From a virus: a DNA stretch of 30,428 nt. The position numbers and the translations under genes are program-made. Below, one piece after another: positions 15,755 to 17,434 of the stretch (position 1 is its first letter; every line of letters begins with the position of its first letter). The stretch covers positions 7,978-38,405 of the IMG/VR virus record IMGVR_UViG_3300000115_000071; one strand, written 5' to 3'. The notes under the pieces are model-generated. The model made no database searches, was not told where the DNA came from, and saw only the letters and a list, made by a program, of their open reading frames with translations.

Positions 15755-16164
15755 TTGGTTCTCCTTATAAAGATACCATCTTTCTTTCCTTTAACTATAC
15801 TCGTAACTGTTCTCCAGCCCCATGCTAAACTGATAGCACCGGTGACAATAAGTACTGGAATGAACAGCCAATCCGCATACAAAGCTATGAGGTAATTAAC
15901 CGTGATCATTATAACACCCCCGATCACTGGTCTCCACCCCATAGTTCCCCTCGAAATAACTAACAGGGCCATCCCTGCTAGTAAACACAACCCTCCAATG
16001 GCACTAAGAATACTAAGATTCTCTAAGCCATGCACCTGCTCAATGGTTGTTGTTTCAGTAGGTGGAATATAATCAGAGAGGGAAACCTTTGGGGGCTTCC
16101 CTACTGACTTACATCCTCCTAGTGCCATCAAGCCTAGTCCTATACCTGCTTTATCAATCATCAT
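15751..16164 (-). CDS. Putative lipoprotein with C-terminal membrane spans
   Basis: About 136-137 residues. The N-terminus (MIDKAGIGLGLMALGGCKSV) has a short basic n-region, a hydrophobic core and a lipobox LGGC, so it is probably cleaved and lipidated at the cysteine. After a 30-residue soluble stretch come three likely membrane spans (LSAIGGLCLLAGMALLVI; GGVIMITVNYLIALYA; FIPVLIVTGAISLAWGW) and a basic tail. Such a mix of lipobox and multiple spans is unusual; the lipobox may instead be part of a signal anchor. Two adjacent ATGs follow AAGGGGGAA and either may start it. It lies between the tRNA cluster and the primase-helicase. Function unknown. Confidence 0.65.
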   Translation of the reverse strand: MMIDKAGIGLGLMALGGCKSVGKPPKVSLSDYIPPTETTTIEQVHGLENLSILSAIGGLCLLAGMALLVISRGTMGWRPVIGGVIMITVNYLIALYADWLFIPVLIVTGAISLAWGWRTVTSIVKGKKDGIFIRRTK

Positions 16165-16251
16165 TTCCCCCTTCGTAAAACCAAATCTTACACACAATAA
16201 AGAATATTATATATGTAAAGATTATACTAATAAATATATCGTATATCATAA

Positions 16252-16336
16252 TACCCTCAATGGGACTCGAACCCATACTCCTGTAAAAGGAAACAGATTT
16301 TAAGTCTGTCGCGTCTGCCAATTCCGCCACAAGGGC
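16252..16336 (-). tRNA. tRNA-Leu (UAA)
   Basis: An 85-base class II tRNA. Acceptor GCCCTTG pairs with TGAGGGT (with G-U pairs), the T-arm is ATGGG-TTCGAGT-CCCAT, and a long variable arm follows the anticodon arm, as expected for leucine. The anticodon stem ACAGA/TCTGT encloses CTTAAAA, so the anticodon is UAA, reading UUA. CCA is not encoded. It is last of the three tRNA genes in transcription order. Confidence 0.93.
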
Positions 16337-16340
16337 ATAG

Positions 16341-16412
<72 letters not shown>

Positions 16413-16413
<1 letters not shown>

Positions 16414-16474
16414 ATAAGAGTATGTCCCCCAGCACTAGGGCTTTCGCCGTCGCAGCAGTTCGCATACTCTTATA
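16413..16474 (-). ncRNA. Structured spacer between two tRNAs: 12-bp inverted repeat with GNRA hairpin
   Basis: Arms at 16413-16424 and 16463-16474 form a perfect 12-bp stem (TATAAGAGTATG / CATACTCTTATA). The 38-base loop contains a smaller hairpin that reads GGC-GAAA-GCC on the minus strand (16439-16448). The element fills the whole gap between tRNA-Met and tRNA-Arg. It could be a processing hairpin for RNase III or E, or a self-cleaving or otherwise active RNA. I tested by eye for hammerhead core motifs (CUGANGA) and did not find them. Confidence 0.55.
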
Positions 16475-16475
16475 G

Positions 16476-16548
16476 TAGGCCAGCCCGGATTCGAACCGGG
16501 GACCAAGCGATTATGAGCCGCATGCTCTGACCGCTGAGCTACTGGCCT
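16476..16548 (-). tRNA. tRNA-Met (CAU), elongator type
   Basis: A 73-base cloverleaf. Acceptor AGGCCAG pairs with CTGGCCT, the D-arm region is TAGCTCAGCGGTCAGAGC, and the T-arm is CCCGG-TTCGAAT-CCGGG. The anticodon loop is CTCATAA, as in elongator tRNA-Met. The outermost anticodon stem pair is T-T, a weakness. A CAU tRNA can also be an Ile2 (lysidine-modified) tRNA, which I cannot exclude. Its first ten bases overlap the 3' end of the resolvase gene. Confidence 0.9.
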
Positions 16549-16925
16549 AGAGTTTCTAACCCCAGAGTAAAGTAACCTTCTTCTCCTTTAGGAGCCCATT
16601 GCTTTGAAGCGTAAACTTCTACAACTTGCACATCATCTACCCATAATCTTTTGTTCATTGAATCAAATATCGCTTTAATAAAATTATCTACGTCTGCCTT
16701 AGGTCTTGATAGCTTAGTCTTCTTGGGTTGTTTAATGTATAGTTCTAGGTCTACCTTAACGGGATCTCTGATTGGCTCAAAGTCAGGCCCAAGAACAGAG
16801 CAGATGACATCATCACACTCTTCTCGGAACCGTTTGTATGGACCGGCAAAGTAAGCCCCGTATCGTGTGACACGAGGCCTACTTGCGGCCACCGGGCTGA
16901 TGGGGAATACCCATTCATTGCCCAT
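16539..16925 (-). CDS. RusA-type Holliday junction resolvase
   Basis: A 128-residue protein with the RusA pattern: ASRPRVTRYGAYFAGPYKRF near the N-terminus, then RPKADVDNFIKAIFDSMNKR with WVDDVQVVEVYASK just after. The acidic residues D78, D80 and D97/D98 correspond to the catalytic D70, D72 and D91 of E. coli RusA. It would cut branched DNA during replication or packaging. T7 uses the unrelated gp3 endonuclease I at the equivalent step, so this is a functional replacement. No ribosome site is evident; the ATG lies just after the ssDNA-binding protein stop, so coupling is likely. The stop codon lies inside the tRNA-Met gene. Confidence 0.92.
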   Translation of the reverse strand: MGNEWVFPISPVAASRPRVTRYGAYFAGPYKRFREECDDVICSVLGPDFEPIRDPVKVDLELYIKQPKKTKLSRPKADVDNFIKAIFDSMNKRLWVDDVQVVEVYASKQWAPKGEEGYFTLGLETLGQ

Positions 16926-16927
16926 GA

Positions 16928-17434
16928 TTAGAACGGCATACCGTCAGCGTCGGTGTCAGCTTCCTTGACCTCGACGTTGCCGGTGAATCCTTCTGTCTTA
17001 CTAAAGCCACTGCTGTTAGAGTAGCCTTCACCCTTCTCAATGATCTGACAACCATTGAGGTACAGGGACATGGATCCATCCCGAGTCAGGATTGCTGGCT
17101 TCAGACGAAGCCGAACCTTATCACCGCCGAACGGGATAGCATTCGTCTCGTCATCAGAAGCATCACGGCAAGGGAATGCCTCGATGTTGTCCTTAACAAA
17201 GAGCTTGGTCTTCACCTTGAGAAGAGTAACACCATCGTCGTTAGTACGAAGGCCGTTAATCTTATCGCTGCCATGCTCTTGCTTCAGGTCCTCAAGCTTC
17301 ATCTGAAGCTCGTCGTCTACAACGACAGTAATGTTGTGGTTTGCTGCATCCGCTCCGAACTTATCGTCGGGACGGTGAAGGTGGGACCACTGCACATTGA
17401 GGGTTTCAGTATTAAATGGATTGATTTTCGTCAT
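16928..17434 (-). CDS. Single-stranded DNA-binding protein (T7 gp2.5-type)
   Basis: About 168 residues. The body shows beta-rich segments (NHNITVVVDDELQMKLEDLK, DKVRLRLKPAILTRDGSMSL). The acidic C-terminal tail ends EADTDADGMPF with a terminal phenylalanine, the feature that in T7 gp2.5 contacts polymerase and primase-helicase. Related phage proteins are annotated as DUF2815/SSB. It is encoded between a small gene and the resolvase, upstream of the replisome genes. The start at MTKINPFN follows AAGGAG by about ten bases; a GTG one codon earlier is an alternative. Confidence 0.85.
   Translation of the reverse strand: MTKINPFNTETLNVQWSHLHRPDDKFGADAANHNITVVVDDELQMKLEDLKQEHGSDKINGLRTNDDGVTLLKVKTKLFVKDNIEAFPCRDASDDETNAIPFGGDKVRLRLKPAILTRDGSMSLYLNGCQIIEKGEGYSNSSGFSKTEGFTGNVEVKEADTDADGMPF

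What the first reader, a model, noticed from the sequence alone, without database searches (positions are those of the whole stretch)
16413..16474. Stem-loop that exactly fills the gap between tRNA-Met and tRNA-Arg
A perfect 12-bp inverted repeat encloses a 38-base loop with a GNRA-capped hairpin. Its stem begins at the first base of tRNA-Arg and stops one base from the tRNA-Met discriminator. It may expose tRNA ends for processing. HDV-like ribozymes next to phage tRNAs have been described, so a catalytic RNA should be considered, though I see no hammerhead core and the HDV double pseudoknot is not evident.
Basis: partly seen in the sequence, partly recalled or inferred. Interest (0 to 1): 0.65.

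Follow-up and report, generated by a model that had tools for sequence, protein, structure and literature searches.

The report
New structured RNA between phage tRNAs
The small stem-loop that fills the gap between two transfer-RNA genes of this uncultured phage belongs to a previously undescribed family of small structured RNAs that I found only between tRNA genes of related phages; its core is conserved while its outer stem is free to change, so it probably works as an RNA, but its job (and whether it cuts itself) is untested.

Summary
The stem-loop is real and exactly as described, but it should be read on the minus strand, the tRNA sense strand. It is not chance: fold z = -3.8, and no shuffle folds as well. 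Close relatives carry the same tRNA-Met/Arg/Leu array with and without it, so it is a clean 61-nt presence/absence element. Tightly packed tRNAs (0-6 nt apart) are the rule in this phage group. Two further, independent versions turned up between other tRNA pairs (Leu|Met and Arg|Lys) in distant phages. All three have an outer stem of unrelated sequence and the same core: P1-CRAA-S-UGCUG-Y-[hairpin]-R-UGCUG-S-GGGM-P1'. The two core strands match far beyond chance (0-2 in a million shuffles), and the S:S and Y:R positions covary. No Rfam family matches. Hammerhead and HDV/theta features were looked for and are absent. I conclude that this is a new small structured RNA family tied to phage tRNA arrays. 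It is most likely excised with the tRNAs and acts through its conserved internal-loop core. A new self-cleaving ribozyme is not excluded (about 20%). Only three independent sequences are known and there is no expression or biochemical evidence.

The parts
16463..16474 (-). P1, 5' arm (TATAAGAGTATG), outer stem of free sequence
   Evidence: Perfect complement of 16413-16424. In the L041 and L266 elements the arms are different sequences, still perfectly paired: 6 of 8 compared pairs change on both sides.
16459..16462 (-). conserved internal-loop strand CGAA (consensus CRAA)
   Evidence: CGAA in L083, L084 and L041; CAAA in L266 (alignment A3).
16452..16458 (-). core strand 1, S-UGCUG-Y (here CTGCTGC)
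   Evidence: UGCUG invariant in all members; S and Y covary with their partners in core strand 2 (C-G/G-C and C-G/U-A).
16436..16451 (-). apical hairpin region, variable (here contains GGC-GAAA-GCC, 16439-16448)
   Evidence: 16 nt here, 7 nt in L041, 9 nt in L266; sequence not conserved.
16429..16435 (-). core strand 2, R-UGCUG-S (here GTGCTGG)
   Evidence: UGCUG invariant; faces core strand 1.
16425..16428 (-). conserved internal-loop strand GGGA (consensus GGGM)
   Evidence: GGGA in window, L083, L084 and L041; GGGC in L266.
16413..16424 (-). P1, 3' arm (CATACTCTTATA); its last base is base 1 of tRNA-Arg
   Evidence: L083 and L084 have a U-A to U-G change that keeps the pair on the tRNA-sense strand.
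16475..16548 (-). upstream tRNA-Met(CAT), no encoded CCA
16340..16413 (-). downstream tRNA-Arg(TCT), no encoded CCA

Best explanation
The stem-loop is one member of a new family of small (47-62 nt) structured RNAs embedded between phage tRNA genes. It is transcribed as part of the tRNA precursor (inferred). Because its outer stem P1 starts within 0-2 nt of one tRNA and ends within 0-4 nt of the next, the normal tRNA maturation enzymes (RNase P at the downstream tRNA, 3'-end nucleases at the upstream tRNA) would cut it out as a compact RNA closed by a perfect helix that resists exonucleases (inferred from anatomy). The conserved part is not the stem but the purine-rich internal loop CRAA/GGGM plus the paired S-UGCUG-Y / R-UGCUG-S strands. 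That core is what acts, most likely as the binding site of a host or phage protein or RNA, i.e. a stable trans-acting small RNA comparable in placement to T4 RNAC/RNAD (inferred). Shown here: conserved core, covarying stems, exclusive location between tRNAs among the members found, sense orientation, clean presence/absence. Not shown: transcription, excision, partner.
For: (1) Three independent versions sit between different tRNA pairs: Met|Arg (window, L002-L004, L083, L084), Leu|Met (L041/L108), Arg|Lys (L266). (2) Core strands anchored at P1 match 20/22 (window-L041), 16/22 (window-L266) and 18/22 (L041-L266), against a shuffle mean of about 6; 0, 2 and 1 of 10^6 shuffles reach this. (3) A model built before L266 was known found it at 25.3 bits, E = 0.0042 over 743 kb, exactly between two tRNAs; gap analysis found it independently. 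(4) 100% of 70 cells pair, 8 of 14 pairs change on both sides, slid controls 0. (5) Specificity: about 125 chance matches to the core pattern in bacterial and viral DNA have flanking stems of 0-5 bp; only the inter-tRNA members have 9-12 bp. (6) Spacers in this group are otherwise 0-6 nt, and empty sites exist for Met|Arg (L005, L055, L087, L088, L092) and Arg|Lys (L262). (7) The tRNA-sense strand keeps pairing through U-A to U-G and U.G/G.U pairs; the antisense strand would have A.C mismatches.
Against: Only three independent sequences. P1 'covariation' between unrelated perfect repeats is weaker evidence than changes along a lineage. The lowest-energy fold of each RNA uses a shifted register inside the core rather than the covarying one. 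L266 alone folds only slightly better than shuffles (z = -1.5). There is no transcript evidence. No partner protein specific to carriers was found. Exclusive tRNA linkage could also mean a cis role or an insertion preference.
Confidence: 0.5

Rival explanations
1. A new class of small self-cleaving ribozyme. The conserved internal loop is the active site, P1 and the apical hairpin only hold it, and cleavage separates the two tRNAs.
For: Conserved single-stranded core with stems of free sequence is the usual anatomy of small ribozymes; size 47-62 nt fits; HDV-like theta ribozymes do occur directly at phage tRNA 3' ends and cut in vitro (PMC10879173). About 16 invariant core nucleotides.
Against: No match to any Rfam ribozyme at E<=10; no hammerhead CUGANGA; near-identical arrays exist without it. 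Cleavage in the core would leave stem arms on both tRNAs, so it would not by itself make mature ends. Other candidate RNAs picked for ribozyme-like settings did not cleave when tested (PMC10085705).
Confidence: 0.2
2. A selfish or mobile hairpin that inserts at tRNA boundaries, its structure being needed for its own spread rather than for the phage.
For: Sporadic, clean presence/absence; three different tRNA junctions; the cassette with element is shared at 96% identity by a phage whose primase is only 48% identical; short direct repeats may flank the window (TATA) and L041 (TTGG) copies, by inspection.
Against: No conserved ends (P1 differs completely between types), never found outside tRNA gaps, one copy per contig, no linked enzyme seen. 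Horizontal exchange of the whole tRNA cassette explains the distribution of the window type.
Confidence: 0.15
3. A cis-acting processing or folding signal: P1 keeps two adjacent tRNAs apart or recruits a nuclease that cuts the precursor.
For: Stem abuts both tRNAs; all members in sense orientation between tRNAs.
Against: Same tRNAs are otherwise encoded 0-2 nt apart without it; a simple stem would not need a conserved core.
Confidence: 0.12
4. Chance inverted repeat or decayed tRNA.
For: None beyond its position inside a tRNA array.
Against: no T-loop or anticodon arm remnant recognised.
Confidence: 0.02

Closest known systems
T4 RNAC and RNAD (species 1 and 2 small stable RNAs)
   Same: Small RNAs of unknown role encoded inside a phage tRNA cluster, 1-6 nt from their neighbours; roles reported unknown (PMC3014915).
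   Different: 119-139 nt; no match to the covariance model R2; at the end of the array, not between two tRNAs.
Theta ribozymes (HDV-like, phage tRNA-associated)
   Same: Short structured RNA starting at a phage tRNA 3' end, next to tRNAs without encoded CCA (PMC10879173).
   Different: Here the first bases after the tRNA pair with the last bases before the next tRNA in one nested hairpin; no HDV double pseudoknot and no Rfam HDV match.
Hammerhead and other small self-cleaving ribozymes (twister, twister-sister, pistol, hatchet)
   Same: Conserved core, free stems, similar length.
   Different: No match to any of these models; hammerhead CUGANGA absent.
GOLLD / ROOL phage RNAs
   Same: Structured RNAs of phages, often described near tRNAs (own knowledge).
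   Different: Hundreds of nucleotides; no Rfam match.

Membership tests
HDV-like / theta ribozyme | P1 5' strand at the cleavage site pairs with an internal segment (nested double pseudoknot) | tested here: not met
   the 7-mers at offsets +1 to +5 after the tRNA pair perfectly only with the extreme 3' arm; offsets -4 and -3 reach only 6 of 7 with wobbles.
HDV-like / theta ribozyme | Match to Rfam HDV models | tested here: not met
   no match at gathering or at E<=10.
HDV-like / theta ribozyme | Mg2+-dependent self-scission at the tRNA 3' end | not testable with these tools
   Needs in vitro transcription.
Hammerhead ribozyme (any permutation) | CUGANGA plus GAAA plus UH core strands | tested here: not met
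   CUGANGA absent from the window element and its flanks.
Twister, twister-sister, pistol, hatchet | Match to the Rfam covariance model | tested here: not met
   E<=10, permissive filters.
Intrinsic transcription terminator | GC-rich stem followed by a U run | tested here: not met
   none found in 16100-17000.
tRNA or tRNA remnant | Cloverleaf / T-arm signature | tested here: not met
   ARAGORN and Rfam tRNA do not call the spacer.
T4 RNAC/RNAD type small stable RNA | Accumulates as a discrete stable RNA | not testable with these tools
   No transcript data; sequence family differs.

The most novel reading that the evidence does not exclude
The conserved core CRAA-S-UGCUG-Y / R-UGCUG-S-GGGM is the active site of a new class of small self-cleaving ribozyme used by phages inside tRNA precursors.
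Probability: 0.2. Interest if true: 0.87.

Novelty: new variant of a known kind. Interest (0 to 1): 0.6.

Why it matters
Phage tRNA clusters have long been known to carry small RNAs whose job is unknown (T4 RNAC and RNAD), and theta ribozymes next to phage tRNAs were reported only in 2024. A compact conserved RNA that occurs only between tRNAs, with matched empty sites in near-identical arrays, makes the question testable: is the RNA excised, does it cleave itself, what does it bind? With a 47-nt minimal version (L041) the key test is one transcription reaction.

Tried and rejected
Known RNA families: Rfam at gathering and at E<=10 on window and L041; the only sub-threshold hits come from the tRNA parts or are chance. 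Plus-strand reading: GNRA loop and wobble pairs exist only on the minus strand. Cultured phages: BLAST with all three element types found nothing relevant; R2 on five cultured phages with tRNA arrays and on the T4 tRNA region found nothing. T-loop-anchored and D-arm-anchored relaxed patterns in 2.9 million viral contigs returned only known members plus chance matches. Partner protein: ORFs of carrier and non-carrier genomes compared, no exclusive partner. Intrinsic terminator and decayed tRNA rejected.

Full report
OBSERVATION. The window is part of a 38.4-kb uncultured phage contig. Its genes include an RNA polymerase, polA, primase-helicase, SSB, RusA, ribonucleotide reductase, portal and capsid. 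On the minus strand three tRNAs follow each other: Met(CAT), Arg(TCT), Leu(TAA). The Met-Arg gap contains a perfect 12-bp inverted repeat, 16463-16474 with 16413-16424, around a 38-nt loop, exactly as described. The relevant RNA is the minus strand, where the loop holds GGC-GAAA-GCC. It folds at -23.4 kcal/mol, z = -3.84, 0 of 200 shuffles.

PRESENCE/ABSENCE. L002, L003 and L004 carry an identical element, although L004's surroundings are only about 84% identical. L083 and L084 carry it with one stem change, A to G, which turns a U-A pair into U-G on the tRNA-sense strand; L083 has one further loop change. L084 is a distant phage (primase 48%, polymerase 52% identical) whose 300-nt tRNA cassette is 96% identical, so the cassette has moved horizontally. 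L005, L055, L056, L087, L088 and L092 have the same Met-Arg pair with 0-2 nt between them. Of 70 distinct inter-tRNA spacers, nearly all are 0-6 nt; the long ones are this family and a few other structured or unrelated spacers.

NEW MEMBERS. A scan of all inter-tRNA gaps in relatives showed a 49-nt spacer between tRNA-Leu and tRNA-Met in L041 with a different perfect outer stem but the same core. A covariance model from these sequences (R1) then found a third type in L266, between tRNA-Arg and tRNA-Lys, at E = 0.0042 over 743 kb, and the gap analysis found the same place independently. L262 is its empty site. The consensus is P1 - CRAA - S-UGCUG-Y - variable hairpin - R-UGCUG-S - GGGM - P1' (alignment A3).

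SIGNIFICANCE. With the strands anchored at P1 and no gaps allowed, the types match at 20, 16 and 18 of 22 positions; 0, 2 and 1 of a million shuffles do as well. Across five sequences and 14 proposed pairs, all 70 cells pair, 8 pairs change on both sides, and slid controls fall to 23-58% paired with no double changes. The S:S pair is C-G, G-C, G-C and the Y:R pair is C-G, C-G, U-A across the three types. The inner UGCUG/UGCUG strands never vary, so their U.G/G.U pairing is a proposal; the energy-optimal register is shifted. As a specificity control, chance matches to the core pattern in bacterial and viral contigs have flanking stems of 0-5 bp (they look like coding sequence by inspection), while the tRNA-gap members have 9 and 12 bp.

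RANGE. Whole-contig searches of about 100 relatives found no further members and one copy per contig. Viral pattern scans are exhausted, and none used the L266-type core, so more members may exist. Negative searches in cultured phages and bacterial genomes are weak.

MECHANISM. The element is not needed for tRNA processing in general, because near-identical arrays lack it. Its conserved part is a small purine-rich internal loop and the UGCUG strands, and its outer stem is free. I think it most likely that it is cut out by tRNA maturation as a small stable RNA and acts through its core, as a protein- or RNA-binding module. T4 RNAC and RNAD are the nearest precedent in position, also of unknown role. 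A new self-cleaving ribozyme is the leading rival: the anatomy fits, theta ribozymes set a precedent next to phage tRNAs, but no known ribozyme model matches, hammerhead and HDV features are missing, and cleavage inside the core would not make mature tRNA ends. A mobile hairpin, a cis processing signal and chance follow.

VERDICT. A genuine, conserved, undescribed small RNA family with three independent members; function open. Marked as inference: transcription, excision, partner, catalysis.

Noticed in passing
L003:4216-4296 (also L002): A second, unrelated inter-tRNA hairpin (18 bp, fold z = -5.2) fills the gap between tRNA-Arg and a tRNA-Leu that differs from the window's; only two contigs carry it.
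   Followed up: partly
L026:3416-3535, L028:1917-2088, L029:2801-2990: A 120-190-nt spacer between tRNA-Leu and tRNA-Ile shares a strongly conserved two-hairpin 3' half (TACCTTGGTTCTGTTGAACTTACCANCAGGACCGTCAATCCGCCC plus a 14-bp hairpin); no Rfam match at gathering for L028: another candidate RNA in phage tRNA arrays.
   Followed up: partly
L012:1658-1747 (and L013-L017, L021): A 90-nt spacer between tRNA-Leu and tRNA-Met with a GC-rich outer repeat, present at the same place in seven contigs; folds no better than shuffles.
   Followed up: partly
window 16539-16548: The stop end of the RusA-like gene (16539-16925, minus) overlaps the first ten bases of tRNA-Met.
   Followed up: no
L084:829-1125 versus window 16250-16548: A 300-nt tRNA cassette is 96% identical between phages whose primases are 48% identical, i.e. 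horizontal exchange of a whole tRNA array.
   Followed up: partly
L355 (T4 AF158101) 1909-2172: T4 rnaC and rnaD sit 1-6 nt from each other and from tRNA-Arg; they do not match the new model.
   Followed up: yes
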